Source: Ceratodon purpureus
Taxonomy: Eukaryota > Streptophyta > Bryopsida > Pseudoditrichales > Ditrichaceae
Assembly (NCBI GenBank): GCA_014871385.1
Contig: CM026426.1
Span: 70,103,287-70,167,286, forward strand
Direction of reading: 5' to 3'
DNA length: 64,000 nt
Part shown: positions 1 to 54,533 of the stretch, piece after piece
Position numbering within the stretch: the stretch's first letter is position 1
Layout of the letters: the number at the start of each line of letters is the position of its first letter
Program-made: the position numbers and the translations under genes
Notes under the pieces: model-generated
Database searches by the model: none
Seen by the model: only the letters and a program-made list of their open reading frames with translations
Told to the model about the DNA's origin: nothing

Positions 1-1980
1 ATCAAATCTGCGGAAAATAACATAAAAATGTTAACTCTGTTGGATGGGGACTCAAAATTAATGCATTTCAACAGGAATTTTTCAAAGCTGTAGAAACCAA
101 TACAAAATAGTTGATTTTCTCTTGATTCGGACCGCGTTTTCTTGTAGTGCATGAACCCCTTGAAGTTCGGCGCTGCAACGCCATTGATCTCCATGACCAG
201 GTTCAGGTTTTTCCAGAAGACGAGGTGGGCCTCCGTGTCCTCGGACTGCATATCGCAAGTGGCAATTGTCATCACGCGGCAGTGGGTGGCATCGTACACA
301 TGGCACGCCATCGTCGACCAATCTTTCACGCGTTTTACATGGTCGAACATGATCCATGCGTTCTCCAAATCGCCACCACCTTGCATTCGGCTGACCAAGT
401 CGACACCACTTCCCGGCCCGACCTCCGACATCTTGAAGACGAAGACTTTGTCACGCATAGATCCCTGACTAGGAAACCTATTCTCCTGGACATACGCCCA
501 GAGACTGTTTCCACAGAGCTTGGTGATACCATCCATGATTCTCTACCTTCTGTATTTTTTGAAGGTGGCGACTTTGTTGCGGATGTTTGGTGACGCCATG
601 TCTTTGCATCGATGCAGAACAGGAACCAGCCTCCATCGTCAGCTTCCTCGGTGGTGCATCCTCAGGCTGTAGCAGGTAGCTCCCGATGAGGAGTTTGCTC
701 GCCTCCAAGACAACGGCGCTCTTCGTTGCTTTGTTATTCATCTCTACCTGCTCTTCTATTAAGCTACTAATTCTGCTTTAGAGTCTCTGTAGTCTCCAAC
801 TTTCACTGGATGATGATGTGTTCCTATGTGAATACAAGCTCTAGTCTGATTCGCTTTGCCCACTACGTAATAAATCTTAGCCTCGCATGTAGCTACACAT
901 GATGGAGATTCTTTACATACCTTGCACACCAGCGTGGATTCAAATGGGGGATGCTGATCCATGAGAAAGGCTTGCAGGGTACAGCCTTCGAACTCAGTCT
1001 CGTTAACCTCGAAGATCTTGGGAACACGCTTCAGGAACTCACACTCCTCGTTGGTGCAGCGCAGCCATCCCACGCAGTTGGAACTTTGAAAAGACAGTCC
1101 GAAGTCGTTTTTGATGTTTGTTGTAATGGTCTTGGTCCATCTGTGTCCGTTGTATTGTTTGTCCATTCCCTGCATTGACTTGGCGGCGAGCTTAGAGGAA
1201 CCTGCAGCAGCTGGGGGCAATTAAAAAAGAACCGGACCGTCAAACTTCGCGGGCAAGTACTCTACTCTCTCGTATCTAATAGTGGAATAGTCTATCTTCT
1301 TTAGAATGTTTTTTGACCCACGCGCCTTTGCAAGCTGTTGAAGGTGGGGGAAAATACTAACTGTGACTTGGGACAATGGAGGAGACACATTGGAAGGAGG
1401 AGCATCTGCGTGGACCTTAGGCACCAACTTGACGCGACTGACCTCGTCATCAGAGGAGAGAGGAATGAATGTCGGGGGAGGAGGTTTCTCTATGTCTGCA
1501 GTTTTAGTACCTGGCTCGACTTTGACCTTGACATCACGAGGTAAAAGAGTCTGAATTGTGCAAGTAGAAGAGCGACGGGGGGTGAGGATCTCAGTGGATG
1601 CAGCCATCAGAGAATCAGTAAGACCATAGACTCTATAGGATCCAGGGAAGAGTCTCCAGTGCAACATATTGTTCTCATCTCTCAATGAAGGTTGCCCGAG
1701 GGTGTGGGTAACATCGGCAGTAACGTCATCAAAGATTTCCTCCTCTATACTAGTAGAATCCTCACGGAAATGGAATCTGAGACTCAGGCGAAGAGAAGAC
1801 ACTGTAGCTAGACCATCGTCATCTACGCGAAACCTAAGAGGGATGCCCATGCCTTGGGCGTACAGACAGACCATCCCCATGTTTGCAGGCAACTCAGTGA
1901 TACTAGTGGAAGAAGGGAGGAGAGTGAGAGTACTAGCGAAGCAGTATTGCGAGAGCAAAGTGGGAGGAATGATGCATTGT
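1..1980 (-). pseudogene. Transposase-like zinc-cluster protein, decayed, 3' end beyond window
   Basis: Read right to left. One frame runs from about 1958 to 759 with a single TAA near 1221, then continues in pieces at 741-478 and about 470-110. The part after the TAA (1220-759) has a Cys/His cluster: CTNEEC, then CKVCKESPSC, then HIGTHHHPV. This is the kind of zinc-binding module found at the N-terminus of MULE-type transposases. The stretch at about 360-120 reads WIMFDHVKRVKDW, MTIATCDMQSEDTEAH and NGVAAPNFKGFM, which looks like the start of a transposase-like catalytic region. No ATG opens the first frame, so an upstream exon or a lost start is likely. I judge it a relic of a multicopy transposon-derived family; the exact superfamily is inferred, not proven. 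Confidence 0.6.
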
Positions 1981-2452
1981 TGTTGATCATTTTATTCAAG
2001 TTGGAATGTCCATGTGGACGACTAGATAATAATTCATTCTGTTATCTAACAAATGTATGATTCAAGAGAGACGGCGATAACTAATAAGAATGTTGCTTTT
2101 TGCTGGCCCAACTGTACTGGGTAGGAGTTTTTAGAACTACGCATTTAATATTTGAATCGTGGGACGGATTCTATTCGATGTGAAGTTTGGTGAGATTAGA
2201 GTGAGCCGTCAGTTGCTTCCATATTTGATACAAGTATTCCAGTGCTTAATTCAAATCTTTTATTATTTTGTGGACTTCGGATTCTCTCCATAATAATAGA
2301 TTGATCTCCTCAGCTTTAATTCAAAATGCATTTAATTATAGTTTCAAATAATTTAAGTAAGTTAAGCATAAGGTAAGTATTTAGGGCTGAGTCAGAGGGG
2401 TTGGGGGTTTGGGATATCTAAGATGAAGGGATTTTAGAAGGAGAGCCATGTT
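1981..2452. other. Spacer with no recognisable gene
   Basis: This stretch is AT-rich and its open frames are short and carry no motif I recognise. It separates the minus-strand transposase relic from the first plus-strand exon-like frame and could hold promoters for both. Confidence 0.5.
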
Positions 2453-3409
2453 GTGAGGAGAGCTGTATCGATAGTTAGACACATGAAGGAGAGTAGAAGG
2501 TCAGCTCCCTCCACTTATGTCACTCCCAATCGTAGAAGAAAATCGTATGGTACAGAGTTTACGAATATGAGAGCGAGGAAGAGGAGAGAATCGCGTAGAA
2601 AAGCGAAGTCGAAAGGCAACATTTTGAGTGCACCTCTGAAGAGACCGGGAGCTGGATTGCCTTTGGCTAAATTTTTTTGTAGCATTCGTAAACTCATTCT
2701 AGAGTCCATAGTAGAGGTGAAAGATGAGGTTTTAGAGGACATAGTAGTTGAGCATCAGGCGCATGAGGTAAGAAGTAGCGGGGAAAAACACATAGAGATG
2801 ACGGAAGAGCTAGGGTTCAATTCCAGTCCGACTTTGGAGACACCACAACCTTATATCAGTTTCAAGGACTCGTCAGCAAGGGAGACGAATTCAAATTCGG
2901 GAGGCAATTCTAATACCGAGGTAGTAAATTTTGTGCTTTACTGTTCTCAGTTTGTCCATTCATGTTTGATTCAGTGGATCAACTTAACAAACTCAAAACA
3001 GTGCCCGTGCTGCATAATCTATTTTTCATCGGTGAAGCTTTTAATGGCAAATGAGACGTAGTTCAAGTTTGAGTGAATGGATTTCGGAAACTAAATCTTG
3101 TCATTTTCTTTATTATTTGTTAAGAGGGACGACTAGATTAGTGTCGAGCAAGAGGTCAAAGGTGCACGGAGAGCAGTAGTGGATATAGAAGAGGATTCCG
3201 AGACAGAGGCATTAAGAGCCGTGGCTCGTAGAGTTGGGCGAGAAATTATGGAGGCGGGCGAAGGTGGGAAGGGGATTGCTTTTGAGGAAGCTGCAAGTCA
3301 TGCGGAGAGAAGGGACCCCGGAAGTGGGGAGGATGATGAATCTCTGGATACTTTGGTACTTACGTCCGAGAAAGATCTGGATGAGGGGTCGGCCCGGGGT
3401 ACGAAGGAG
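2453..3409 (+). pseudogene. Possible N-terminal exons of the ParB-like/methyltransferase gene
   Basis: Two plus-strand exon-like stretches. The first (2453 to about 2920) encodes a basic then mixed-charge segment (RRRKSYGTEF, RARKRRESRRKAKSKG) and ends at a plausible donor after ...NSNTE. The second opens after TTAG at 3141 and encodes an acidic segment (DIEEDSETEALRAV, GSGEDDESLDTL), ending at GAG|GTAAGC near 3409. The left edge of the 6.26-kb tandem duplication lies inside this second exon, at GATCTGGATGAG (3374). I recognise no domain. The assignment to the downstream gene rests on strand, splice signals and position only. The first frame has no ATG, so the true start is unknown. Confidence 0.35.
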
Positions 3410-3699
3410 GTAAGCATTCGAAGGAGGTAAGCATTCGGGAATGGGGGTTTGGGGTTTTTCTTGTAATTGTTAGGCTGAAGCTGATCCTTGAAGACGCGGA
3501 CTGAGAGGAACTGAGTGAGGAGGGTTGACGAGAGAAGTTGAGAGTAGTGTAGGAGGTGGAGAGGGATCAAATCGCAGTCGAGGGGTTTAAGGTGGGGGAA
3601 GAGGGGTATATGATGCCGACCGCGAGGGCAGAGTGTATGAGAGAGCCTCAGCAGGCGAGGAGCAAGGTGGGGCAAGGCGCACTGGAGAAGTTTGGTGAG

Positions 3700-6600
3700 C
3701 ACAAGGAGATGTAGGGCGCCATGGCCCCGGCCTCGGTGGTGGGGGTTGCGATCCCCCTTGCGGATTTTCATTTTTGTTCCGAAGAATGCAAGGCAGCCAC
3801 GGGCGCATTCGAAGCCCACATCCCCTCACAAGGAGGGGCGCAATATGAGGGAGGGGATTATAGGTGAGCAGAAGGTGATGTGGGCAGCCATGGCCGCGGC
3901 CTCAGTGGTGGGGGTTGCGAGCCTCCTTGCCGATTTTCAAGCATTGATTCCGCGAAATGCCAGGCAGCCACAGGCGCATTCGGAGCCGACATCTCCTCAC
4001 AAGGAGGGGGTGAATGTGGGGGAGGGGATGATTTGTATGCACAAGGAGATGTGGGCAGCCATGGCCGCGACCTCGGTGGTGGGGGTTGCGAGCCCCCTTG
4101 CGAATTTTCAAGCATTGGTTCCGGGGAATGCAAGATACCCAGGGGGCATTCGGAGCCGACATCCCTCACAATGAGGGGGTGAATGTGGAGGAGGGGATTA
4201 TTGGTATGCACAAGGAGATGTGGGCAGCCATGGCCAGGGCCTTGGTGGTGGGGGTTGCGAGCCCCCTTGCGGATTTTCAAGCATTGGTCTTGGAGAATGC
4301 CTGGCAGCCAGGGGGCATTCCGAGCCGACATCCCCTCACTAGGAGGGGCTCAATGTGGGCGAGGGGATTATTAGTATGCACAAGGACATGTGGGCAGCCA
4401 TGGCCGCAGCCTCGGTGGTGGGGGTTGCGAGCCCCCTTGCGATTTTTCAAGCATTGGTTCCGGGGAATGCAAGGCAGCCAGGGGGGCATTCAAAGCCGAC
4501 ATCCCCTCACAAGGAGGGGGTGAATGTATGGGAGGGGATTATTGGTATGCACAAGGAGATGTGGGCAGCCATCGCCGCGGCCTCGGTGTTGGGGGTTGCG
4601 AGCCTCCTTGCGGATTTTCAAGCAGTGGTTCATGGGAATGCAAGGCAGCCAGGGGCGCATTTGGAGCCGAGATCCCCTCACTAGGAGGGGGTGAATGTGG
4701 GGAGGGGATTATTTTTAATGCACAAAGAGATGAAGGCAGCCATGGCCGCAGCCTCCGTGGTGGGGGTTGCGAGCCCCCTTGCGGATTTTCAAGCATTTGT
4801 TCGATTGAATGCAAGGTAGCCTGGGCCGCATTCGGAGCCGACATCCCCTCACAACGAGGCGGTGAATGTGTTGGAGGGGAAGTTTGGTATGGAGAAGGAG
4901 ATGTAGGCAGCGATGGCCGCGGCCTCGGTGGTGGGGGTTGCGAGCCCCCTTGTGGATTTTCAAGCATTTGTTCCGGGGAATGCAAGGCAGCCAGGGCGGC
5001 ATTCAAAGCCGACATCCCCTCACAAGGAGGGGGTGAATGTATGGGAGGGGATTATTGGTATGCACAAGGAGATGTGGGCAGCCATGGCCGCGGCCTCGGT
5101 GGTGGGGGTTGCGAGCGTCCTTGCGGATTTTCAAGCAGTGGTTCATGGGAATGGAAGGCAGCCAGGGGCGCATTTGGAGCCGACATCCCCTCACAAGGAG
5201 AAGGTGAATGTGGGTGAGGGGATTATTTTTTATGCACAAAGAGATGACGGCAGCCATGGCCGCAGCCTCCGAGGTGGGGGTTGCGAGCCACCTTGCGAAT
5301 TTTCAAGCACTTGTACCAGGTAATGCATGGTAGCTAGGGGCCCATTCGGAGCCAACGTCCTCTCACAAGGAAGGGGTGAATGTGGGCGAGGGGATTACTG
5401 GTATAGACAAAGAGATGAGGGCAACCATGGCCACAGCCTTGGAGGTGGGGGTTGCGAGCCGATGCAGATTTTCAAGCACTGGTTCCGGGGAATGCAAGGC
5501 AGCCAGGGGCGCATTCGTAGCCGACATCCCCTCACAAGGAGGGGCTCAATGTGCGGGAGGGGATTATTGGTGAGCAGAAGGCGATGTCGGCAGCCATTGC
5601 CGCGGCCTCGGTGGTGGGGGTTGCTAGCCCCCTTGCGATTTTTAAAGCATTGGTTCCGGGGAATGCAAGGCAGCCAAGGGGGCATTCAAAGCCGACATCC
5701 CCTCACAATGAGGGGCTCAATGTTGGCGAGGGGATAATTAGTATGCACAAGGAGATGTGGGCAGCCATGGCCGCGGCCTCGGTGGTGGGGGTTGCGAGCC
5801 CCCTTGTGGATTTTCAAGCATTTGTTCCGGGGAATGCAAGGCAGCCAAGGCGGCATTCAAAGCCGACATCCCCTCACAAGGAGGGGGTGAATGTATGGGA
5901 GGGGATTATTGGTATGCACAAGGAGATGTGGGCAGCCATGGCCGCGGCCTCGGTGGTGGGGGTTGCGAGCCTCCTTGCGGATTTTCAAGCACGGGTTCAT
6001 GGGAATGCAAGGCAGCCAGGGGCGCATTTGGAGCCGACATCCCCTCACTAGGAGGAGGTGAATGTGGGCGAGGGGATTATTTTTAATGCACAAAGGGATG
6101 GAGGTTGTCATGGCCGCAGCCTTCGTGGTGGGGGTTGCGAGCCACCTTGCGGATTTTCAAGCATTTGTTCCATTGAATGCAAGGTTGCCGGGGCCGCATT
6201 CGGAGCCGACATCCCCTCAAAACGAGGCGGTGAATGAGTTGGAGGGGAAGTTTGGTATGCAGAAGGCGATGTCGGCAGCCATTGCCGCGGCCTCGGTGGT
6301 GGGGGTTGCGAGCCCCCTTGCGGATTTTCAAGCACTCGTACTAGGTAATGCATGGCAGCTAGGGTGCATTCGGAGCCGACGTCCCCTCCCAAGGAGGGGG
6401 TGAATGTGGGCGAGGGGATTATTGGTATACACAAAGAGATGAGGGCAACCATGGCCGGGGCCTCGGTGGAAGGGGTTGCGAGCCGATGCGGATTTTCAAG
6501 CACTGGTTCCGGGGAATGCAAGGCAGCCAGGGGGGCATTCGTAGCCGACATCCCCTCACAAGGAGGGGCTCAATGTAGGGGAGGGGATTATTGGTGAGCA

Positions 6601-7060
6601 CAAGAAGATCAGGGCAGCCCTGGCCGCGGCCTCGGTGGTGGGGGTTGCGAGCCTCCTTGCCGATTTCAAGCATTGGTTCCGGGGAATGCAAGCTAGATAG
6701 GGGCGCATTCGGAGCCGCTCTTTCATCACAAGGAGGGGGTGAATATGGGCGAGGGGATTATTGGTATGCACAAAGAGATGAGGGTAGCCATGGCCGCGGC
6801 CTTGGTGGTGGGGGTTGCGAGCCCCCTTGCAGATTTTCAAGCATTGGTTCATGGGAATGCAAGGCAGCCAGTGGCGCATTCGGAGCCGACATCTCCTTAG
6901 AAGGAGGGGCTCAATGTGGGGGAGGGGATTATTGCGAATCTGATGGAGTTGTGGACAGCTATGACCGCGGCCTCGGTGGTGGGGGTTGCAATAATGGTTT
7001 GGGCTACCGTGGCCGCGGCCTTGGTGGTGGAAGATTCGAGCCCCCTTGAGCCTCTTAGGG
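3700..7060 (+). repeat. GC-rich 171-bp tandem array, about 20 units, copy 1
   Basis: Anchors such as GTGGGCAGCC recur at 3880, 4051, 4220, 4390 and 4561, a period of 169-171 bp. Each unit carries the palindrome GGCCGCGGCC, the hairpin GGGGGTTGCGAGCCCCC and the hairpin CCCCTCACAAGGAGGGG. Because 171 is a multiple of three, the array stays open in several frames on both strands, giving periodic 57-residue ORFs. Between the donor at 3409 and the acceptor at 7170 it would sit in an intron, so I treat it as a satellite. A Gly/Cys-rich coding repeat cannot be fully excluded: the last unit merges into a GRGLGGG-type frame. Confidence 0.9.
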
Positions 7061-7170
7061 GCATAATTAATACACTTAGGGGAATGGTTTGTATTGATTT
7101 CAACTTCTCAATTCTTGTTGCTTGAAGTCTTTGATTGATATCTTATAATGTGCATACACTTTGTGTTGTA

Positions 7171-9650
7171 GGAGTTCACAGACGAATTCACGGCAAGTGA
7201 CTTCGATGGCCCAACTCCAGCAGAAACTGAGGTAATCTAATTATCTTTGCCATTTCTTTTTAACATTGCGTAGTATATTGAACATCTATTATTCTTTCTA
7301 ATTATGTTATAAAAACTTAGATGGAAACTGACATTGACTTTGTTCCTCTTCTCTAGGTATTCTCAGATGTACCCTTGTCCATCAGTTCCCCGATCTCAGT
7401 GATCAATGTTTCCGACCTCTCGGATTCATTTGATCAACCCTACTATAGGTGTAATTTAGGAAACCTTGCAGGTTTAGGTAGTGGACCTCTCGAGGTCCAC
7501 TCTCCTCAGTACATGCCTACGTCCCCTGTCTACGAGCCTACATCCCCGGGATATATGCCCACTTCTCCACGACTTGGTACCCCGCCAATGTCTCCACCTT
7601 CTCCTTCCTCCCCTATTAGAGTGAGGAGGCCTGCCCATGTTGTCTTCGCCCTCCCAGCGATATCGCCATTCCCTGTCTAGCAGACGAGGCGATTTTGGAA
7701 GAGGCGCCGTCACTGGAACTGCAGACAGGCTAGGGATTATTATAGTCGTGCACCACGCACATAGTGGCCTATGCTCTACTAATTACTACTTGATTTGATT
7801 CTCAAAAGAGATGTATCAGTCTAAGAAGCAATTCTTTTATTATTCTTTTTACTGTTTGATTTGCTTACGATCCTTGCCTTCGAATCAAGTCTAAATACGT
7901 ATGACCTTTGACAGGTAACTCAAACATAGGATCAGTTGCCAGCGCCATCTTGTCCTATTGATTTGACGAATGCAGTGGACAGTGAATTGGGACATAGGAA
8001 ACAGCACAAGCAAGACTCCATTGGCGTCATCAACGACCTCCGAATACTCCCAAAGACGAAGTCGCGTATCCTAGTTCCCCTTTGCAGGATGCTTTTAATG
8101 GCAAGAGAGCGACCTGTAGGAGAGATCGGAGTTCAACATTTGGAGCGACAGTTTGTCAAAGGCTACAGAGATGGAGACCGTGTCATGTACATTTCCATGT
8201 ACAACCACAAAGAGAAGACAACCGATGTCACTGAGGAGATCAAGGCTCACTGGAGCCCTTGTTGGCAAAAAGTCAATGATGCTTTCGAAGATGAGCTCTT
8301 GGCCGACTCCGACTAGAAGGAGTTCTATATGGGAAGATGTTTTATGTCTGGGAAGGTATTCTATGTCTGGGAAGGTAACCATCGCCTTGCCGCATGGTAC
8401 AGACATATCAACAATCATCACAGCGAAGATCCAGCGTGGCACATCTCCGTGCATTGCATTGTTCTTGACCCACGCGGTCATGTGGGAAACCTTCTTCATG
8501 CCATGCACGACATTAACTCGTAAGAACTTTATCCCTATTTATTGTCCCAACTTCTTGCAAGCTGCTTGAACTTGCACTTCTCGCCTTTAATTAACTACCA
8601 TCTTTTCAAGCAGGTCTACAGAGAATGATCACGTTAAGAGTAATCTTCCGGCAAAACTCTTTCGTATTCGCTCTTTCGGTGTGATGAAATTGGAGGAGTT
8701 CAAGGATCTCCTCACACCGGACGAGTATCAAATGTCTTTGAATCACAAACCATCAATTCCTGGATGGTTTACTTTGCCAACAAAAGTCTTCATCGCATTT
8801 CTTTATCGTCTAAGCACTTACTCCCCCCCCCCCCCCCTCACGCGTCTAAATGACATGATTTGTCTTGCTCTTGACACTCACAAGTTGATAATTTTATTTC
8901 CCAGAGAGGAATCGTTGCTGCTTCTGACGAAGCTGCCAGGATCTACAAGTAGAAACACCCATTCCAGAGCAAACTGCGTCAGGTATTTGGGATGCCATGT
9001 CTGCCGCTTCAACCACCATGGTCGACACCATTAAGAAGGACTTCACCAAGTACCTGGCCATTGCCAATCCCAAAAACGGTGATGACTTCCTTGCAGAGGT
9101 GAGTTTCTTGACATTTCTACTTTAGTTGTTCAATAAGTATTTAAGAAATCTAATTTTACCGTTCATGTAATGTTTATTTACCAGATCAATCGGCATTACA
9201 GTGAATTCTCCAAGCCGGAGATGACAGTGGAGAAGCTTCAGAAGATTGTTCCTGCAGCTGTTGATGCAAAATTTAAAGCGCGTTGGCTGAGGTGGTGGAA
9301 CTCTTCACCAAGTGCACGACAATCTTACAGATTTTTGCCCCACGACTTTAAGGAGGCCGACTTCGACCCTTGGTTGAACAAGGCAACATTCTAGGCTGGG
9401 GTATCGTACCTTCAAACTTCGTAATAATCACTAAAACCACTTCTTCTTTGTCCCATGTCAATATTTACCTCAACGACTTTACCTTTCTGTCGCAGATAGA
9501 GGATGCTGTTACCCGGGAGTTTGATGACATCTGCAAGACAGAGAACCTTGTCATTAAGTGGAAGTCTTTCCCGGGAGTTATGCGGCCGGACGCATATGTG
9601 GAGAGTTGGCGTATTCGCCTTTGGGAAAATGCAAATTACATGATTCTGAT
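7171..9650 (+). pseudogene. ParB-like exons of the methyltransferase gene, copy 1 (3' part absent)
   Basis: This is the same exon series as at 13429-15904: EFTDEFTASDFDGP, the CTD-like heptad exon (about 7358-7680), the ParB-like exon (7915 to about 8520) and helical exons up to about 9650. It then stops abruptly at the duplication junction instead of running on into the methyltransferase. The ParB-like exon reads GYRDGDRVMYIS and later FYVWEGNHRLAAW. In-frame stops lie at about 7927-7929 and after LLADSD at 8314-8316, exactly as in copy 2. With no methyltransferase half, this copy can at most give a truncated product or be skipped as intron. Confidence 0.7.
7498..7587 (+). other. Three CTD-like heptads (YxPTSPx) in an exon, copy 1
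   Basis: The exon encodes YMPTSPV, YEPTSPG and YMPTSPR in direct tandem, followed by TPPMSPPSPSSP. These match the RNA polymerase II C-terminal domain consensus YSPTSPS except that Ser2 is Met or Glu and Ser7 varies. The same segment recurs at 13756-13845 in copy 2. The sequence match is plain; a functional link to the CTD is only a possibility. Confidence 0.75.
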
Positions 9651-9654
9651 GAGG

Positions 9655-12600
9655 GATCTGGATGAGGGGTCGGCTACGAAGGAGGTAAGCATTCGGGAAT
9701 GGGGGTTTGGGGTTTTTCTTGTAATTGTTAGGCTGAAGCTGATCCTTGAAGACGCGGACTGAGAGGAACTGAGTGAGGAGGGTTGACGAGAGAAGTTGAG
9801 AGTAGTGTAGGAGGTGGAGAGGGATCAAATCGCAGTCGAGGGGTTTAAGGTGGGGGAAGAGGGGTATATGATGCCGACCGCGAGGGCAGAGTGTATGAGA
9901 GAGCCTCAGCAGGCGAGGAGCAAGGTGGGGCAAGGCGCACTGGAGAAGTTTGGTGAGCACAAGGAGATGTAGGGCGCCATGGCCCCGGCCTCGGTGGTGG
10001 GGGTTGCGATCCCCCTTGCGGATTTTCATTTTTGTTCCGAAGAATGCAAGGCAGCCACGGGCGCATTCGAAGCCCACATCCCCTCACAAGGAGGGGCGCA
10101 ATATGAGGGAGGGGATTATAGGTGAGCAGAAGGTGATGTGGGCAGCCATGGCCGCGGCCTCAGTGGTGGGGGTTGCGAGCCTCCTTGCCGATTTTCAAGC
10201 ATTGATTCCGCGAAATGCCAGGCAGCCACAGGCGCATTCGGAGCCGACATCTCCTCACAAGGAGGGGGTGAATGTGGGGGAGGGGATGATTTGTATGCAC
10301 AAGGAGATGTGGGCAGCCATGGCCGCGACCTCGGTGGTGGGGGTTGCGAGCCCCCTTGCGAATTTTCAAGCATTGGTTCCGGGGAATGCAAGATACCCAG
10401 GGGGCATTCGGAGCCGACATCCCTCACAATGAGGGGGTGAATGTGGAGGAGGGGATTATTGGTATGCACAAGGAGATGTGGGCAGCCATGGCCAGGGCCT
10501 TGGTGGTGGGGGTTGCGAGCCCCCTTGCGGATTTTCAAGCATTGGTCTTGGAGAATGCCTGGCAGCCAGGGGGCATTCCGAGCCGACATCCCCTCACTAG
10601 GAGGGGCTCAATGTGGGCGAGGGGATTATTAGTATGCACAAGGACATGTGGGCAGCCATGGCCGCAGCCTCGGTGGTGGGGGTTGCGAGCCCCCTTGCGA
10701 TTTTTCAAGCATTGGTTCCGGGGAATGCAAGGCAGCCAGGGGGGCATTCAAAGCCGACATCCCCTCACAAGGAGGGGGTGAATGTATGGGAGGGGATTAT
10801 TGGTATGCACAAGGAGATGTGGGCAGCCATCGCCGCGGCCTCGGTGTTGGGGGTTGCGAGCCTCCTTGCGGATTTTCAAGCAGTGGTTCATGGGAATGCA
10901 AGGCAGCCAGGGGCGCATTTGGAGCCGAGATCCCCTCACTAGGAGGGGGTGAATGTGGGGAGGGGATTATTTTTAATGCACAAAGAGATGAAGGCAGCCA
11001 TGGCCGCAGCCTCCGTGGTGGGGGTTGCGAGCCCCCTTGCGGATTTTCAAGCATTTGTTCGATTGAATGCAAGGTAGCCTGGGCCGCATTCGGAGCCGAC
11101 ATCCCCTCACAACGAGGCGGTGAATGTGTTGGAGGGGAAGTTTGGTATGGAGAAGGAGATGTAGGCAGCGATGGCCGCGGCCTCGGTGGTGGGGGTTGCG
11201 AGCCCCCTTGTGGATTTTCAAGCATTTGTTCCGGGGAATGCAAGGCAGCCAGGGCGGCATTCAAAGCCGACATCCCCTCACAAGGAGGGGGTGAATGTAT
11301 GGGAGGGGATTATTGGTATGCACAAGGAGATGTGGGCAGCCATGGCCGCGGCCTCGGTGGTGGGGGTTGCGAGCGTCCTTGCGGATTTTCAAGCAGTGGT
11401 TCATGGGAATGGAAGGCAGCCAGGGGCGCATTTGGAGCCGACATCCCCTCACAAGGAGAAGGTGAATGTGGGTGAGGGGATTATTTTTTATGCACAAAGA
11501 GATGACGGCAGCCATGGCCGCAGCCTCCGAGGTGGGGGTTGCGAGCCACCTTGCGAATTTTCAAGCACTTGTACCAGGTAATGCATGGTAGCTAGGGGCC
11601 CATTCGGAGCCAACGTCCTCTCACAAGGAAGGGGTGAATGTGGGCGAGGGGATTACTGGTATAGACAAAGAGATGAGGGCAACCATGGCCACAGCCTTGG
11701 AGGTGGGGGTTGCGAGCCGATGCAGATTTTCAAGCACTGGTTCCGGGGAATGCAAGGCAGCCAGGGGCGCATTCGTAGCCGACATCCCCTCACAAGGAGG
11801 GGCTCAATGTGCGGGAGGGGATTATTGGTGAGCAGAAGGCGATGTCGGCAGCCATTGCCGCGGCCTCGGTGGTGGGGGTTGCTAGCCCCCTTGCGATTTT
11901 TAAAGCATTGGTTCCGGGGAATGCAAGGCAGCCAAGGGGGCATTCAAAGCCGACATCCCCTCACAATGAGGGGCTCAATGTTGGCGAGGGGATAATTAGT
12001 ATGCACAAGGAGATGTGGGCAGCCATGGCCGCGGCCTCGGTGGTGGGGGTTGCGAGCCCCCTTGTGGATTTTCAAGCATTTGTTCCGGGGAATGCAAGGC
12101 AGCCAAGGCGGCATTCAAAGCCGACATCCCCTCACAAGGAGGGGGTGAATGTATGGGAGGGGATTATTGGTATGCACAAGGAGATGTGGGCAGCCATGGC
12201 CGCGGCCTCGGTGGTGGGGGTTGCGAGCCTCCTTGCGGATTTTCAAGCACGGGTTCATGGGAATGCAAGGCAGCCAGGGGCGCATTTGGAGCCGACATCC
12301 CCTCACTAGGAGGAGGTGAATGTGGGCGAGGGGATTATTTTTAATGCACAAAGGGATGGAGGTTGTCATGGCCGCAGCCTTCGTGGTGGGGGTTGCGAGC
12401 CACCTTGCGGATTTTCAAGCATTTGTTCCATTGAATGCAAGGTTGCCGGGGCCGCATTCGGAGCCGACATCCCCTCAAAACGAGGCGGTGAATGAGTTGG
12501 AGGGGAAGTTTGGTATGCAGAAGGCGATGTCGGCAGCCATTGCCGCGGCCTCGGTGGTGGGGGTTGCGAGCCCCCTTGCGGATTTTCAAGCACTCGTACT

Positions 12601-15600
12601 AGGTAATGCATGGCAGCTAGGGTGCATTCGGAGCCGACGTCCCCTCCCAAGGAGGGGGTGAATGTGGGCGAGGGGATTATTGGTATACACAAAGAGATGA
12701 GGGCAACCATGGCCGGGGCCTCGGTGGAAGGGGTTGCGAGCCGATGCGGATTTTCAAGCACTGGTTCCGGGGAATGCAAGGCAGCCAGGGGGGCATTCGT
12801 AGCCGACATCCCCTCACAAGGAGGGGCTCAATGTGGGGGAGGGGATTATTGGTGAGCACAAGAAGATCAGGGCAGCCCTGGCCGCGGCCTCGGTGGTGGG
12901 GGTTGCGAGCCTCCTTGCCGATTTCAAGCATTGGTTCCGGGGAATGCAAGCTAGATAGGGGCGCATTCGGAGCCGCTCTTTCATCACAAGGAGGGGGTGA
13001 ATATGGGCGAGGGGATTATTGGTATGCACAAAGAGATGAGGGTAGCCATGGCCGCGGCCTTGGTGGTGGGGGTTGCGAGCCCCCTTGCAGATTTTCAAGC
13101 ATTGGTTCATGGGAATGCAAGGCAGCCAGTGGCGCATTCGGAGCCGACATCTCCTTAGAAGGAGGGGCTCAATGTGGGGGAGGGGATTATTGCGAATCTG
13201 ATGGAGTTGTGGACAGCTATGACCGCGGCCTCGGTGGTGGGGGTTGCAATAATGGTTTGGGCTACCGTGGCCGCGGCCTTGGTGGTGGAAGATTCGAGCC
13301 CCCTTGAGCCTCTTAGGGGCATAATTAATACACTTAGGGGAATGGTTTGTATTGATTTCAACTTCTCAATTCTTGTTGCTTGAAGTCTTTGATTGATATC
13401 TTATAATGTGCATACACTTTGTGTTGTAGGAGTTCACAGACGAATTCACGGCAAGTGACTTCGATGGCCCAACTCCAGCAGAAACTGAGGTAATCTAATT
13501 ATCTTTGCCATTTCTTTTTAACATTGCGTAGTATATTGAACATCTATTATTCTTTCTAATTATGTTATAAAAACTTAGATGGAAACTGACATTGACTTTG
13601 TTCCTCTTCTCTAGGTATTCTCAGATGTACCCTTGTCCATCAGTTCCCCGATCTCAGTGATCAATGTTTCCGACCTCTCGGATTCATTTGATCAACCCTA
13701 CTATAGGTGTAATTTAGGAAACCTTGCAGGTTTAGGTAGTGGACCTCTCGAGGTCCACTCTCCTCAGTACATGCCTACGTCCCCTGTCTACGAGCCTACA
13801 TCCCCGGGATATATGCCCACTTCTCCACGACTTGGTACCCCGCCAATGTCTCCACCTTCTCCTTCCTCCCCTATTAGAGTGAGGAGGCCTGCCCATGTTG
13901 TCTTCGCCCTCCCAGCGATATCGCCATTCCCTGTCTAGCAGACGAGGCGATTTTGGAAGAGGCGCCGTCACTGGAACTGCAGACAGGCTAGGGATTATTA
14001 TAGTCGTGCACCACGCACATAGTGGCCTATGCTCTACTAATTACTACTTGATTTGATTCTCAAAAGAGATGTATCAGTCTAAGAAGCAATTCTTTTATTA
14101 TTCTTTTTACTGTTTGATTTGCTTACGATCCTTGCCTTCGAATCAAGTCTAAATACGTATGACCTTTGACAGGTAACTCAAACATAGGATCAGTTGCCAG
14201 CGCCATCTTGTCCTATTGATTTGACGAATGCAGTGGACAGTGAATTGGGACATAGGAAACAGCACAAGCAAGACTCCATTGGCGTCATCAACGACCTCCG
14301 AATACTCCCAAAGACGAAGTCGCGTATCCTAGTTCCCCTTTGCAGGATGCTTTTAATGGCAAGAGAGCGACCTGTAGGAGAGATCGGAGTTCAACATTTG
14401 GAGCGACAGTTTGTCAAAGGCTACAGAGATGGAGACCGTGTCATGTACATTTCCATGTACAACCACAAAGAGAAGACAACCGATGTCACTGAGGAGATCA
14501 AGGCTCACTGGAGCCCTTGTTGGCAAAAAGTCAATGATGCTTTCGAAGATGAGCTCTTGGCCGACTCCGACTAGAAGGAGTTCTATATGGGAAGATGTTT
14601 TATGTCTGGGAAGGTATTCTATGTCTGGGAAGGTAACCATCGCCTTGCCGCATGGTACAGACATATCAACAATCATCACAGCGAAGATCCAGCGTGGCAC
14701 ATCTCCGTGCATTGCATTGTTCTTGACCCACGCGGTCATGTGGGAAACCTTCTTCATGCCATGCACGACATTAACTCGTAAGAACTTTATCCCTATTTAT
14801 TGTCCCAACTTCTTGCAAGCTGCTTGAACTTGCACTTCTCGCCTTTAATTAACTACCATCTTTTCAAGCAGGTCTACAGAGAATGATCACGTTAAGAGTA
14901 ATCTTCCGGCAAAACTCTTTCGTATTCGCTCTTTCGGTGTGATGAAATTGGAGGAGTTCAAGGATCTCCTCACACCGGACGAGTATCAAATGTCTTTGAA
15001 TCACAAACCATCAATTCCTGGATGGTTTACTTTGCCAACAAAAGTCTTCATCGCATTTCTTTATCGTCTAAGCACTTACTCCCCCCCCCCCTCACGCGTC
15101 TAAATGACATGATTTGTCTTGCTCTTGACACTCACAAGTTGATAATTTTATTTCCCAGAGAGGAATCGTTGCTGCTTCTGACGAAGCTGCCAGGATCTAC
15201 AAGTAGAAACACCCATTCCAGAGCAAACTGCGTCAGGTATTTGGGATGCCATGTCTGCCGCTTCAACCACCATGGTCGACACCATTAAGAAGGACTTCAC
15301 CAAGTACCTGGCCATTGCCAATCCCAAAAACGGTGATGACTTCCTTGCAGAGGTGAGTTTCTTGACATTTCTACTTTAGTTGTTCAATAAGTATTTAAGA
15401 AATCTAATTTTACCGTTCATGTAATGTTTATTTACCAGATCAATCGGCATTACAGTGAATTCTCCAAGCCGGAGATGACAGTGGAGAAGCTTCAGAAGAT
15501 TGTTCCTGCAGCTGTTGATGCAAAATTTAAAGCGCGTTGGCTGAGGTGGTGGAACTCTTCACCAAGTGCACGACAATCTTACAGATTTTTGCCCCACGAC

Positions 15601-15904
15601 TTTAAGGAGGCCGACTTCGACCCTTGGTTGAACAAGGCAACATTCTAGGCTGGGGTATCGTACCTTCAAACTTCGTAATAATCACTAAAACCACTTCTTC
15701 TTTGTCCCATGTCAATATTTACCTCAACGACTTTACCTTTCTGTCGCAGATAGAGGATGCTGTTACCCGGGAGTTTGATGACATCTGCAAGACAGAGAAC
15801 CTTGTCATTAAGTGGAAGTCTTTCCCGGGAGTTATGCGGCCGGACGCATATGTGGAGAGTTGGCGTATTCGCCTTTGGGAAAATGCAAATTACATGATTC
15901 TGAT
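9655..15904 (+). repeat. Tandem segmental duplication, copy 2
   Basis: Second copy of 3374-9650, in direct orientation and nearly identical. The junction reads ...ATTCTGAT followed by GAGGGATCTGGATGAGG, joining the right end of copy 1 (9650) to the left end of copy 2 with only a few bases of shared sequence. At its own right end copy 2 continues as ATTCTGATCAATGGC into the unduplicated methyltransferase half. The pattern fits unequal or replication-based duplication, or an assembly artefact over a repeat. Confidence 0.95.
9958..13318 (+). repeat. GC-rich 171-bp tandem array, about 20 units, copy 2
   Basis: Unit-for-unit copy of the array at 3700-7060, shifted by 6258 bp, with the same degenerate units in the same order. 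The unit order is kept, so the array was copied as part of the larger block and has not been rehomogenised since. Confidence 0.9.
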
Positions 15905-18037
15905 CAATGGCAAGTAAACTTCATTAGGTACTTCAAAAGAGAGCTGCTTCCAAAAGGTGCAATTACACTGAAGAAGTTCCCCCGGTACTTTTCAGCGTGG
16001 ATTGAGAAAGGCTCTGATCAGTGTATCTATACTCCTCTGCAGTTGAAGAGGTACAAATCGCCCCACCTAGGTGCTGGTTGTTGGTACCTGGATTGCATTC
16101 GAGGTTTCGTCATTGAGTCCGGAGCGGAGCTCAAATCTGAGCTTGACGGGGGATCATCAGCCATCGAGGATTCTGGAGACGGTTTAGATGAGGCCGAAGG
16201 CTTGCAGGATCAATCATTTGCACCTCCACCGAAGAAAGGAAGAGCGCGGAGACTGCAAAAATTGGGTTCTAAGTCCCAGGGCTCTCAGGAGACTGGTGCA
16301 GAGTCCTCCGCACCAGAGAAGGGGGCTGCCGTTCCCTCTCCTGTTATTGTCGTTTCCAATCCGTCCCCTACTCTTGCGCCTTCATCGGTCAATGCATCTG
16401 CTATCACCAGAGGTCTTCTGGAGCAAAGGAAGGCCAGACTTCTCCCGGCAAGCACCTCCTCCGCAGGAACTCCCCATTCCACTGGTGTTTCTATCATCAA
16501 GTCATCCGTGACCCCGTTACTGGTTCGTAACATGGAGCTCAAAGACAAGGGTGGCCATCCGGATTGGGTGAAAACTCTAGAGTTTGTGCGCAAGGTATGA
16601 TTCTGTTCTTAAATAATACGATATTACATACACTTCAATTAATTTCATATAGTCTAACCCTATTTTCTTGTTTCTCCAGTTTGGACGTGGCCGCTTGAAC
16701 CAAGTTCCTGAGCGGTGCCAGGATGAGAATCATCTGGAAGTCGACTTGATCATTGTAGACATCCCTGAGAATCTTCCTGACCCTCTCGTTTCCGATCCCC
16801 CTACAGTGATTCCTCCTTGGAAGTCCCGTGAAAAGGATTATGTCTACGACATTTTCTATTTCGCAAATCTTTACTTGCAGAATGATGGCGCTCTGTGCAT
16901 CATCTACAACAATGATCAAGCGTTGGCTATGGATATTCTCGAAGAAGCTAGCGCCACTAAGTTCGTTCTTTACAAAGACTGGTGGCGCTTCAATGTGCTC
17001 GGCCTCACTTCTCCTACGAACCCCGGCAACCTGGTAATTTCATCCTTTCCTTTCCTTCTCTTTACTTAGTACTATCCCTTCCGTTTATTCATACTGACAT
17101 AATTTGGTTGATTGCAGACTAATCGGTTCTAGATCCGCGTCTTCGTTTGTGGTGGCGAGCCGCATCTAAGTTCTCCTTTCAAACGAAGAAATCCGATGTC
17201 ATACATGGCAACCTCAACATTACCGAGAGTGATGCGATTTTCAACTTTATCGACGTTGATTCTCAGCAAATGAATGGAGATGTTCCATGGAGAGGGCCAA
17301 GGGAGAAAGCCCCTGAGATGATGGAGAGCATAATTGGAGAGCTCTCGAAGCCCGGCGACATAGTCCTCGACTGGAAGGCAGGAACAGGTAACCGTTCTTA
17401 CATGTCACTACATAATTATTCCTCTCATTCCTTCCTCAGTTTCTCACTTCTTCACCATGCTATGAGTTGCAGGGGCCTCTGTCAAGGCTTGCTAGGCTAT
17501 TGGTCGTCATATTATAGCTTTTGAGGATGACGAAGCCATATTCAACGCCATTCTCAAACCGTATATGGCAGCAAAATCTCCCATGGGCCCCCCTAAACAT
17601 CCTAGACCAGCAGCAGCAGAGGAAGCACCAGCGAAGAAACAAAGACCCAATAAGTATTGTAAGTCTTACTCTAGAATTTGTATGTTTTGTGCAATTCATC
17701 TAGTATTATTTGTGTACGCAAATTTACCTATTCGATCTAACCACTTTTGGCTTTCTATTGCAAAGTAGTTGTGACAACATCGCCAAGTGGGCATAGAGCA
17801 GTGTCCACTCCATCGTGGCGTCTTCATTCCAGCCCGATTCAGCCTTTTATACTTCCGGACTATGCAGAGGGCTTAGCACAAGCGCATCAATGTGGTGCAC
17901 TTAGATACGTTCCTAGTCGGCCCACTAGTTTTGATCCCAGGGCCCTTCTATTTGTCGATGAAGAGGCTATAGAAGGAGATTCTAAGTCATCGGGTTCTGA
18001 GAGTGGAACTAGCAATTGTAGCATGTTCTCAGTTTGA
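13429..18037 (+). pseudogene. ParB/Srx-like domain plus beta-class DNA methyltransferase-like gene (decayed)
   Basis: Multi-exon gene. Exons in order: EFTDEFTASDFDGP; CTD-like heptads (13616-13938); a ParB/sulfiredoxin-like exon (14173 to about 14780) with PVGEIGVQHLERQFVKGY, RDGDRVMYIS and FYVWEGNHRLAAW; helical exons to 15900; a linker rich in Ser/Pro/Ala (about 15910-16597); then the methyltransferase. Motif-IV-like DLIIVDIPENLPD lies at about 16740, REKAPEMMESIIGEL (motif-X-like) at about 17310, and VLDWKAGTGASVKAC across the intron ending at 17472, followed by AIGRHIIAFEDDEAIFNAIL. The order IV, X, I is that of beta-class N4-cytosine/N6-adenine enzymes. In-frame stops (14185-14187, 14572-14574, TAG at 17493-17495) and frameshifts near 15210 and 15890 make it a relic as read. 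The expected PP(Y/F/W) in motif IV is not clear. Fusions of ParB and methylase domains are known in bacteria and phages; this one has spliceosomal introns. Confidence 0.65.
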
Positions 18038-18298
18038 AAGAGGCCACGGTCTATCATTGTTTTCATTTGATTTGATTTGATTCGTGTATGTAAAGGTCTA
18101 CAATTGTAAGTCTTTTTAGCTCTCAATTCTCATATGCTTGAAGGGAAAGCCACTTCAGTGATGAAGTTATTTTAGTTTGCAAATTCTGGTCAAAACACTA
18201 GACACTACTAACATGACCAACTACACTGCTCAAAATATATAGAGTACTCTAATTTTTTCCTTTATCAATGAACAAAATCTCACATTTCCATAGCCATG
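18038..18298. other. Convergent 3' spacer
   Basis: This is the AT-rich gap between the C-terminal exon of the methyltransferase gene (ending at 18037, plus) and the stop of the minus-strand ORF at 18299. It presumably holds both polyadenylation regions. I see no repeat or gene in it. Confidence 0.5.
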
Positions 18299-18862
18299 TT
18301 ACCTATTCTTGGGAGAGATCCAGATACCATCTCTCGGAGAAATTTTCTCTCCCTCCGGCACATCCAAGACCTCATTCCCATTGGCCCATAGCAATGTCCT
18401 CAACTGATCTAACTCAACGCAACTAAGTTCTCCAAGGGACGCTGTCTCTAACCTCTTGTTGTAAATTGGAGTTGCAAGTTTCCAAGAACTCCTAAAAACA
18501 CTCCAGTTCATGTTGAACCAATTAACTTCGTATTCGTCCTTCGGACTCCAATGGCGACCCTCGTACGAAAAGTAATCCCACCTCGCTAGCCGAAGGCATG
18601 CGTATTCAGGACTGCAGTCAATCTCACGCTTCCAACTCTTCAACACAGCACGAGCGTTCTCGACGTCTTCAAACGTGATAACAGTCGGAGGAGTCCAACC
18701 CTTTGTGGCACTACTATCTATATGATCCCACGGGTTAGGCCCGTCCACCATCCGCTTCAGCAAATCCTGTAAAATTGTTTCACAGGCAACGACCTCAAAT
18801 GAATCGCCCATACCTTCAAACAACTCCCTAGCAAGTACACGCTTAAGTTCTACGGAAACCAT
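18299..18862 (-). CDS. Orphan 187-residue protein, convergent with the methyltransferase gene
   Basis: An uninterrupted ATG-to-stop frame of 187 codons (ATG at 18862). It is one of the few intact frames outside the retroelements. The protein is soluble-looking, with no signal peptide or membrane segment. It is rich in Trp and charged residues (KSWKREIDC, RLARWDYFSYEGRHWSP, NWFNMNWSVFRSSWK) and has predicted helices at the N-terminus (VELKRVLARELFEGM). A TATA-like box lies about 33-43 bp upstream. I recognise no family. Its position, tail to tail with the methyltransferase gene, suggests a possible partner gene of the same unit, but nothing in the sequence proves this. Confidence 0.65.
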   Translation of the reverse strand: MVSVELKRVLARELFEGMGDSFEVVACETILQDLLKRMVDGPNPWDHIDSSATKGWTPPTVITFEDVENARAVLKSWKREIDCSPEYACLRLARWDYFSYEGRHWSPKDEYEVNWFNMNWSVFRSSWKLATPIYNKRLETASLGELSCVELDQLRTLLWANGNEVLDVPEGEKISPRDGIWISPKNR

Positions 18863-18894
18863 TAAGCTAATACAACTTCAAGGACGTCTGCTAA

Positions 18895-18905
18895 GGTTTA
18901 TATAG
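18895..18905 (-). promoter_or_regulatory. TATA-like box for the 187-residue ORF
   Basis: On the minus strand this reads CTATATAAACC, starting about 33-43 bp upstream of the ATG at 18862. That implies a short leader. The match to a plant TATA box is good; no transcript evidence is available here. Confidence 0.5.
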
Positions 18906-19429
18906 ATTGTTTCTTGACACTTAATCTAGGATTGGTCTTTTCTAAAGACGGAGAATTCTTTGACCAAGACATGCAGTATGACTTGGTATACATCTTGGTT
19001 TCAGCAACTCCATTATTGTACACAAACTCTGAAATATTCTACGAAGTATTTAGACCATTTCTTCTTGCTTGTTTCGAGTTTTTTTTTCCTTATAATATCT
19101 ACATTATCTATTCAATCTAAACCGTTGTAATTTAAAAACATCATGCAAGAAGAGTCGTATCTACATCCAATAAGGGACCAAATCTAATGGAATGTATGCA
19201 TGACGTCATCATGACATCAGCCCTAATTTGTATCTTAGAGAACAAACGTAATAAATTCTAACCAGAGATATCCCTGATTTCCACGGTAATTTACTCTTAT
19301 ACTAAAATAAGTAACAAAATCAACCCTTATTTTAGTAACTTTCCAAGGTTACAGGGTCTACTTTGCTTTTGAAAATTTGGCTAATTGTCAATTCTGTGCT
19401 TTCCATTCTGTGCTCTCCGCTCTCCGCTC
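18906..19429. other. AT-rich spacer with no gene seen
   Basis: Only short random frames are present. The region lies between two divergently transcribed units: the minus-strand orphan ORF and the plus-strand hAT gene. Confidence 0.5.
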
Positions 19430-19692
19430 ACATACGAACTTTCCCCCGCTCGTGCGCGCCTGCGCCTGCATTCGCGCGTCAGTGTCCGCCCGCACCCGCC
19501 CGCTTCGTCCTCCCTAAACCCCCGCCCGTCTTCCCTCGCGCGCGTGATCCGCCACGCGGCCTGCAATCGCGCGCGACCTCCTGCGCCTGCCCGTTCGCTT
19601 TGGAGCGCGCCCGATCTCCTGGTGCGCGCGCGCCCGTCGGATCACGCCCGTTGGATCGCGCCCGTCCGGACAGTACTCGCCCGGTCGAGGGC
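19430..19692 (+). repeat. GC-rich CGCGCCCG-type degenerate array upstream of the hAT gene
   Basis: Short degenerate repeats around CGCGCCCGTYNGATC stand out sharply against AT-rich flanks. The array ends directly before a TATA box. Similar arrays occur at 24418-24785 (opposite orientation) and 26730-27050 (same orientation). Open frames through it are composition artefacts. Confidence 0.75.
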
Positions 19693-19697
19693 GGCAG

Positions 19698-19706
19698 TAT
19701 ATAAAC
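19698..19706 (+). promoter_or_regulatory. TATA box of the hAT gene
   Basis: TATATAAAC lies immediately after the GC-rich array and about 245 bp before the ATG at 19950. The leader contains TTGGGTGGGGGGAA at 19811-19824, which recurs in the leader of the kinase-like gene at 24918-24931. Confidence 0.55.
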
Positions 19707-19949
19707 TGCCCCCTTGATTTGACATCCACCTTACTTCCTTGCGTGTTTCATGTCCTGGGTCTCCTTGAGGGCTCCTTGCTTGAAACTGTTAGCTTGGGGA
19801 GACACTTGGTTTGGGTGGGGGGAATGTAAAAATTCTTCTCTCCATAAATCAATGTTTCAAGCACTTTTCAGACACACTAAGTTATATCAGATAATAATCT
19901 TTTGGTACTACTGGTCCTATTAGTCTAGAGACTTCCCTAATCATTCACT

Positions 19950-50478: not shown

Positions 50479-50492
50479 GGTCTGCTGGTCCC

Positions 50493-54020: not shown

Positions 54021-54533
54021 CACATAGAGCTGCAAGAGTGGTGGAGGTGCTCATTCAAAGCTTTTGGACCTTGTAAGTGTTCAAACAATGTGGATGTCCT
54101 TGCTTGCTCTCTAAAGGTGCTGATTTGAGTGACTGAGGTGCATAGATGCACATTGGAGTCTAGGTGATGCTCTTTAAAGTCATTCAAGGCCATCTTTGCA
54201 TGTAGGAGCAAAGAAATGGGAGGTATACTTGAGTGAGGTGCAAAGGTTTGCATTTGAGTTCATTGTGACATGACTTGAGTGCTTGAAGTGAACCATTGCA
54301 CATTTGAGCTAGAAGGGACTTAATTTGATTGATTGGAGTGTGCACTCACACACTAGGGCCTTATAAGGGCTGATTTGCTAGTGGGAGGTGCTTACATGAG
54401 TATGAGAGCCTTGTAGGGGCTGATGTCAGTGTGAGAGGTGTGTAGAAACACCTTGGAGTCTAGAAGGGGCTCAAAGTGAGTGTAGAGGTGCCATAGTACA
54501 CATTGAGAGCTTGGAGGGGCTGATCCTGACATA

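What the first reader, a model, noticed from the sequence alone, without database searches (positions are those of the whole stretch)
13429..18037. A spliced eukaryotic gene combining a ParB/sulfiredoxin-like domain with a beta-class DNA methyltransferase
Seen: GYRDGDRVMYIS and FYVWEGNHRLAAW in one exon; DLIIVDIPENLPD, REKAPEMMESIIGEL, VLDWKAGTGASVKAC and AIGRHIIAFEDDEAIF in later exons, in the IV-X-I order of N4C/N6A enzymes. Known: ParB-type domains fused to or beside DNA methylases occur in bacteria and phages. Inferred: a prokaryote- or virus-derived modification gene settled in this lineage and gained introns, perhaps as part of a mobile unit with the convergent ORF at 18299-18862. The copy here is broken, but intact relatives in the same genome could write N4-methylcytosine or N6-methyladenine.
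Basis: partly seen in the sequence, partly recalled or inferred. Interest (0 to 1): 0.9.

Follow-up and report, generated by a model that had tools for sequence, protein, structure and literature searches.

The report
Transposon carrying ParB-methylase-like gene
The broken gene is one of many copies of a spliced gene, under purifying selection, that rides on a jumping DNA element and joins a bacterial-type ParB-like fold to a DNA-methyltransferase-like domain whose usual catalytic motif is altered.

Summary
Nine exons with GT-AG borders and matching phases (14173-18037) encode a ParB/sulfiredoxin-like fold and a beta-class amino-methyltransferase-like domain (Pfam N6_N4_Mtase, E 4.7e-9, joined exons). 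This copy is dead: six stops, two small frameshifts, one deletion on my exon model. The ParB assignment rests on predicted structure and one motif; sequence profiles do not see it.

The context changes the story. Exon 6 has 727 first-look candidates in the 362-Mb genome (40 scored, 94-95% identical). In 18 of 20 fetched copies the ParB-like and methylase-like exons lie together. Exons evolve at dN/dS 0.20-0.36; wrong frames of exon 6 give 1.15-1.18. Copies share a sharp right terminus. Three units followed to both ends have terminal inverted repeats and 10-bp target duplications (one in repetitive flanks) and carry a divergent, selected gene with a SWIM-like finger: probably a Mutator-like DNA transposon, though no Pfam transposase domain was matched. 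A 171-bp tandem array sits in an intron.

The motif-IV position reads DIPE, not (D/S)PPY, in 19 of 19 readable copies, so ordinary 4mC/6mA writing is doubtful. Best guess: an element-encoded factor acting on its own DNA, like the VANC anti-silencing proteins. That function is inferred, not shown.

The parts
150..1991 (-). Broken remnant of the element's divergent left gene (transposase-like), cut off at 150
   Evidence: 90.4% to L047 over 150-2736; homologous to the 731-aa ORF of L047, dN/dS 0.22 against L047 with 2 in-frame stops; the 9 kb upstream of the window show no match to L047 and no left end
2438..3409 (+). Probable 5' exon(s) of the ParB-methylase-like gene, ending ...GTKE before GTAAGC
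   Evidence: ORFs and phase-0 donor read directly; 95-97% matches of 2925-3401 in L030 and 3217-3399 in L026; inferred, no transcript
3419..9650 (+). First copy of a tandem duplication (171-bp array plus 5' half of the gene)
   Evidence: 99.92% to 9677-15904: one substitution and a 4-base C-run difference
9950..13247 (+). 171-bp tandem array, 19.3 copies, inside an intron by splice phase (twin at 3692-6989)
   Evidence: TRF; arrays of 170-172 bp period in 14 of 20 fetched copies, none reported in L044-L047
13430..13878 (+). Possible exons with acidic stretch and Rpb1-CTD-like heptads (13430-13489, 13615-13878)
   Evidence: Splice signals and phase; Pfam RNA_pol_Rpb1_R 20.6 bits vs 20.3 cutoff; membership of this gene inferred
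14173..14777 (+). Exon with ParB/sulfiredoxin-like fold, GNHR motif
   Evidence: 39 relatives; AF2 of relative P0003 pLDDT 79, pTM 0.73; Foldseek and VIA hits to ParB/Srx-fold chains
14872..15654 (+). Exons 14872-15043, 15159-15352, 15439-15654, no known domain
   Evidence: GT-AG, phases; exon 15439-15645 dN/dS 0.26 across 19 sequences
15750..16594 (+). Long middle exon, no known domain; lacks about 165 bp near 15883-15888
   Evidence: tail dN/dS 0.29 across 19 sequences; no PDB sequence match
16680..17033 (+). Exon with the catalytic-half counterpart (VDLIIVDIPEN)
   Evidence: 75% to P0002; dN/dS 0.26 across 21 sequences
17118..17387 (+). Exon with motif X and the start of motif I of the methylase-like domain
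   Evidence: Pfam N6_N4_Mtase; dN/dS 0.36 across 21 sequences
17473..17658 (+). Exon with the end of motif I and motif II of the methylase-like domain
   Evidence: Pfam N6_N4_Mtase on joined exons; P0001; open in 20 of 20 copies
17769..18037 (+). Last exon and stop codon
   Evidence: Phase-compatible, TGA at 18035-18037
18299..18862 (-). Convergent 187-aa ORF of the same element
   Evidence: Block 18271-19110 shared by L024, L026 (in two pieces), L029, L030, L032 and L035; dN/dS 0.36 over 6 sequences, window included
19179..19446 (+). Right terminal block of the transposon, ending ...CATACGAACTTTCCCC at 19446
   Evidence: Terminus found by pattern in 18 of 21 sequences, with different flanks beyond it; in L039 it lies left of exon 6 and so belongs to a neighbouring copy

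Best explanation
The locus is a dead, partly duplicated copy of a high-copy TIR DNA transposon, most likely Mutator-like. Shown: copies share a sharp right terminus; three units followed to both ends have inverted terminal repeats and 10-bp target duplications and a divergent, selected left gene with a SWIM-like finger; the second, spliced, selected gene joins a ParB/Srx-like fold to a beta-class amino-methyltransferase-like domain, with a 171-bp tandem array in an intron. Inferred: the left gene is the transposase; the second gene's product works on the element's own DNA. The most likely mechanism is that the ParB-like domain, a nucleotide-binding DNA-clamp or nickase fold elsewhere, recognises the element (the intron array being a candidate site), and the AdoMet-binding domain either modifies DNA with an altered active site or senses AdoMet, so that the element escapes host silencing or is helped to transpose. 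Anatomy about 0.9; action on its own DNA about 0.5; anti-silencing about 0.3.
For: 727 and 1024 first-look candidates genome-wide for exon 6 and for the terminal block, 40 scored in each: 94-95% and about 89-93% identical apart from the window itself. ParB-like and methylase-like exons together in 18 of 20 fetched copies. Right terminus in 18 of 21 sequences. TIRs of 53-79 alignable columns in 3 of 3 units and exactly 10-bp TSDs: TTGAAATCCC and GATGCCACCG, each found once per flank, and GATGCGAGAG in a flank where that 10-mer occurs twice. dN/dS 0.20-0.36 against 1.18 and 1.15 for wrong frames; left gene 0.12-0.36 in 8 comparisons, wrong frames above 1 in 14 of 16. N6_N4_Mtase; ParB/Srx fold. 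171-bp arrays in 14 of 20 copies. Precedent: VANC21 of the VANDAL21 transposon binds motifs in tandem repeats, some in introns of VANC21 itself (PMC5735166, passages).
Against: No Pfam transposase domain matched in the left gene; SWIM only at E 0.042, below its cutoff; no PDB sequence match. ParB profiles do not match, and no Foldseek hit reached E 0.001. The catalytic motif is altered. No binding, methylation or expression data. Two of 20 copies (L025, L037) lack the ParB-like exons, and 6 of 20 show no 171-bp array. The window copy has no left end within 9 kb upstream. Only three units were followed to both ends. The array could be a passive minisatellite.
Confidence: 0.75

Rival explanations
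1. A host gene family of bacterial or viral origin that writes 4mC or 6mA, merely duplicated and surrounded by transposons.
For: Selected coding sequence, N6_N4_Mtase match, precedent of N4CMT in rotifers (PMC8885841, passages).
Against: Very many near-identical places, a common sharp terminus, TIRs and TSDs; motif-IV position DIPE in 19 of 19 readable copies, whereas changing SPPY to APPA abolishes N4CMT activity (PMC8885841, passages).
Confidence: 0.08
2. The transposon is real, but the second gene is a transposition helper: ParB-like nicking or strand handling, with the methylase-like part as a structural AdoMet or DNA-binding module, and no role in silencing.
For: A ParB domain fused to an adenine methylase in Bacillus cereus (Bce_0392) is reported to nick DNA (PMC5512222, passages); altered motif IV.
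Against: No direct evidence either way; the intron array is unexplained by it.
Confidence: 0.3
3. A virus-derived (provirus-like) element rather than a transposon.
For: ParB/Srx folds and methylases are common in phages and large DNA viruses.
Against: No relative in IMG/VR by pattern scans; the ORFs scanned hold no capsid-like Pfam match; 10-bp TSDs with TIRs.
Confidence: 0.05
4. The methylase-like domain is an active amino-methyltransferase with a non-canonical active site.
For: Motifs X, I and II well kept, dN/dS 0.26-0.36 over these exons; a phage methylase, L006, also departs from DPPY, reading DPIY.
Against: No aromatic residue at the fourth place in either candidate motif IV, DIPE or DPPT; replacing Ser and Tyr by Ala abolishes N4CMT activity (PMC8885841, passages).
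Confidence: 0.25

Closest known systems
VANDAL21 / VANC (Arabidopsis transposons with an anti-silencing gene; Mutator-like by recall)
   Same: DNA transposon with an extra gene and tandem repeats, some in introns of that gene (PMC5735166, passages)
   Different: The extra gene here has a ParB/Srx-like fold and a methylase-like domain; whether VANC sequences are related was not tested
ParB-methylase fusions of phages and bacteria (e.g. Vibrio phage AUR95847.1 = L001; Bce_0392)
   Same: ParB-type domain N-terminal, beta-class amino-methylase C-terminal
   Different: L001 is 404 aa with DPPY; here about 480 aa of unknown sequence lie between, there are introns, the motif-IV position is DIPE, and no ParB sequence similarity is detectable
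Bdelloid rotifer N4CMT (PF01555)
   Same: Permuted bacterial-type amino-methylase in a eukaryotic genome, with introns (PMC8885841, passages)
   Different: N4CMT is a host gene with SPPY and a chromodomain; this one is transposon-borne with an altered motif
Mutator-like elements (MuDR and others)
   Same: TIRs, 9-11 bp TSD, SWIM finger in the transposase, second gene (family traits recalled)
   Different: Transposase domain not matched by Pfam; the second gene is unlike any MULE accessory gene that I recall

Membership tests
Beta-class N6/N4 amino-methyltransferase (PF01555) | Profile match above the curated cutoff | tested here: met
   36.9 bits vs 26.7 on joined exons, model positions 159-219 of 221 only
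Beta-class N6/N4 amino-methyltransferase (PF01555) | Order: catalytic half before the AdoMet half | tested here: inconclusive
   X-I-II half significant; the IV-VIII half only by position and by a phage tblastn match spanning 66-236 (E 8e-7); AF2 of that exon poor, pLDDT 49
Beta-class N6/N4 amino-methyltransferase (PF01555) | Catalytic motif IV (D/S/N)PP(Y/F/W) | tested here: not met
   DIPE in 19 of 19 readable copies and P0002; a forced alignment puts DPPT there instead; neither has the aromatic
ParB/sulfiredoxin superfamily | Fold | tested here: met
ParB/sulfiredoxin superfamily | Sequence-profile similarity | tested here: not met
   1 of 33 members touches Pfam ddrB-ParB at E 0.19, no other ParB model; hhalign to 11 phage ParB domains probability 0.27%
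ParB/sulfiredoxin superfamily | G-x-x-R motif at the strand-helix turn (motif recalled) | tested here: met
   GNHR at P0003 153-156 between strand 148-152 and helix 154-167; seen in 17 of 18 printed copies, the 18th a partial match
ParB/sulfiredoxin superfamily | Nucleotide binding or nicking | not testable with these tools
   needs protein
Mutator-like element | 9-11 bp target-site duplication | tested here: met
   Exactly 10 bp in 3 of 3 units with both ends, one of them in repetitive flanks
Mutator-like element | Terminal inverted repeats | tested here: met
   53-79 alignable columns in 3 of 3
Mutator-like element | MULE transposase domain | tested here: inconclusive
   Pfam reports no transposase domain in ORFs of 731, 287 and 196 aa, SWIM E 0.042; D, D and CxxH-like positions seen by eye only
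VANC anti-silencing protein | Sequence relationship or hypomethylation of own element | not tested
   -

The most novel reading that the evidence does not exclude
A eukaryotic DNA transposon carries its own ParB-type DNA-clamp and AdoMet-domain factor that loads on a tandem 'parS-like' array in its intron and keeps the element free of host DNA methylation, a self-epigenome system built from bacterial conflict-system parts.
Probability: 0.22. Interest if true: 0.93.

Novelty: new variant of a known kind. Interest (0 to 1): 0.78.

Why it matters
Plant DNA transposons with a second gene are known, and for VANDALs that gene defeats silencing. Here a possible analogue is made of a ParB/Srx-like fold and a methylase-like domain, parts otherwise seen in phages and bacteria, and it has been kept under purifying selection while the element spread to very many places. 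It offers a direct test of whether transposons arm themselves with DNA-marking enzymes, and of what an amino-methylase becomes when its catalytic motif changes but its AdoMet site stays.

Tried and rejected
Host-gene reading: dropped after units with TIR and TSD were found. Rolling-circle or LTR-less 3'-end reading: considered while only the right terminus was known; dropped once left ends with inverted repeats appeared. Fuzzy searches for the complement of the right end found no left end; in two of the three units the outer ten bases do not align. The inverted-repeat search in 13250-19900 gave only short, internal pairs that mark no unit, since the window copy has lost its left end. L045 at first looked like one element nested in another; the shared GATGCGAGAG at L047 left and L030 right suggests one composite unit, but that 10-mer occurs twice in the left flank, so this is uncertain. 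barely tests the right end, because its query stopped three bases beyond it. IMG/VR pattern scans and GTDB scans found no relatives. A protein search with the 944-aa joined sequence scored 7,996 candidates and found none at E 0.01, perhaps because the database relatives are exon-sized. Structure of exon 6 is uninformative. CpG-decay signs: the 18 rows of database clade B show Arg to Cys/Trp/His/Gln in 39 of 183 changes, the 17 rows of clade A in 3 of 153; five other rows were left out of that count. dN/dS pairs are not independent; codons with stops and inserted bases were skipped, and sequences covering under 90% were dropped. The ten paper searches listed no paper that I recognised as describing this element; passages were read in PMC8885841, PMC5512222, PMC9861306 and PMC5735166 only. 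The library lacks most subscription papers.
Full report
Observation. The exon set runs 14173-14777, 14872-15043, 15159-15352, 15439-15654, 15750-16594, 16680-17033, 17118-17387, 17473-17658 and 17769-18037; introns are 84-115 bp. On this model the copy is broken by six stops, two small frameshifts and about 165 missing bases. By splice phase the gene goes further upstream, across an intron that holds a 171-bp tandem array, to an exon ending at 3409. A 6.2-kb stretch is present twice in tandem, differing by one substitution and a 4-base change in a C run: a very recent duplication or an assembly error.

Methylase-like domain. Joined exons 16680-17658 match Pfam N6_N4_Mtase at E 4.7e-9, above cutoff, over model positions 159-219; PADLOC type II methylases at best 1.2e-8; PHROG methylases at best 5.2e-11; PDB methylases weakly (DpnA, E 0.00017). 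In phages, 498 of 50,697 records match at E 1 or better; a 635-kb phage spans query 66-236 at E 8e-7. Motifs X, I and II are clear (hhalign P 3.5e-14 over 67 columns, on a two-row family profile). The motif-IV position reads VDLIIVDIPEN in the window, VDLIIADIPEN in P0002 and DIPEN in 19 of 19 readable genomic copies. A forced global alignment preferred the nearby SDPPT, so the placement is uncertain, but neither has the aromatic fourth residue. AF2 of this exon from two sequences was poor (pLDDT 49); it puts a strand just before DIPE. Foldseek with it gave nothing of use.

Copies. When the genome could be searched, exon 6 gave 727 first-look candidates; the 40 scored include the window itself and are otherwise 94-95% identical over 354 bases. 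The true number is not counted; hundreds is my estimate. The assembly has 362 Mb with one 110.5-Mb contig, which holds the window. I recall these sizes for the moss Ceratodon purpureus, male, V chromosome; this was not tested, and the titles do not settle it. Twenty copies with flanks were fetched. Homology with the window runs from about 13.3-14.0 to 17.9-18.1 kb in 18 of them and from about 16.2-16.4 kb in two (L025, L037); the convergent-ORF block is in six. Open exons, as coverage over 93% without a stop in the best single-frame match: ParB-like exon 14 of 18, exon 2 15 of 18, exon 4 16 of 18, exon 5 12 of 18, exon 6 18 of 20, exon 7 18 of 20, exon 8 20 of 20; all seven are open in 5 of 20, counted by me from the rows. 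Exon 3, start codons and splice sites of copies were not tested. Mean pairwise dN/dS, window included: ParB-like exon 0.20, exon 4 0.26, exon 5 tail 0.29, exon 6 0.26, exon 7 0.36, convergent ORF 0.36; wrong frames of exon 6 1.18 and 1.15.

Transposon. The terminus ...CATACGAACTTTCCCC is in 18 of 21 sequences, with different DNA beyond it; in L039 it belongs to a neighbouring copy, and L025, L026 and L027 do not show it. A genome search with the terminal block gave 1024 first-look candidates, 40 scored. Following three units leftwards gave left ends with a matching inverted repeat (53-79 alignable columns) and exactly 10-bp TSDs: TTGAAATCCC and GATGCCACCG, each found once in either flank searched, and GATGCGAGAG, which occurs twice in one flank. 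The left part holds a divergent gene with open stretches of 731, 287 and 196 aa, the last with a SWIM-like finger (E 0.042, below cutoff), dN/dS 0.12-0.36 in 8 comparisons. TIRs, TSD length and SWIM finger fit a Mutator-like element (traits recalled); Pfam names no transposase domain, so I file it as Mutator-like, not as a proven member. The window copy keeps the right end, but its left gene is cut at position 150 and no left end lies within 9 kb upstream.

Reading. The ParB-like and methylase-like gene is cargo or a working part of the transposon, kept by selection while the element multiplied. The closest functional precedent read here is VANC21, whose transposon carries its binding motifs as tandem repeats, some in introns of VANC21 (PMC5735166, passages). 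The 171-bp array, found in 14 of 20 copies, is a candidate counterpart. Phage and bacterial ParB-methylase fusions (L001; Bce_0392, PMC5512222 passages) show that the pairing exists elsewhere, in one case with nicking activity. The altered motif IV argues against plain 4mC/6mA writing: in rotifer N4CMT, changing SPPY to APPA abolishes activity (PMC8885841, passages). What the protein does is not shown by any data here.

Noticed in passing
window 3419-9650 and 9677-15904: 6.2-kb tandem duplication, 99.92% identical, including the whole 19-copy 171-bp array; recent duplication or assembly error.
   Followed up: partly
window 19941-22225 (+): hAT-type transposase (DUF659 E 2.9e-30, Dimer_Tnp_hAT 7.3e-7) in two overlapping frames, just right of the element's end.
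   Followed up: partly
window 13615-13878: Three YxPTSPx-like heptads resembling the RNA polymerase II tail in a probable exon of the gene.
   Followed up: no
window 39110-51428 (-) and 54507-58591 (+): Long gypsy-type and copia-type retrotransposon ORFs (by eye); the stretch 44815-50502 has strong CpG depletion (0.28).
   Followed up: no
window 25654-26544 (+): Open stretch with a weak protein-kinase match (E 5e-6, below cutoff), context unknown.
   Followed up: no
P0015, P0018-P0027, P0029, P0032, P0033, P0035, P0037, P0040, P0041: A second, star-like clade of ParB-like exons, 15 of 18 with longest contigs of 163-727 kb, with Arg-loss changes typical of decaying CpG: perhaps the same kind of element in another genome.
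   Followed up: partly
L047, L045, L030: Composite unit with two gene copies and an internal right end between one outer pair of possible TSDs, in repetitive flanks.
   Followed up: partly
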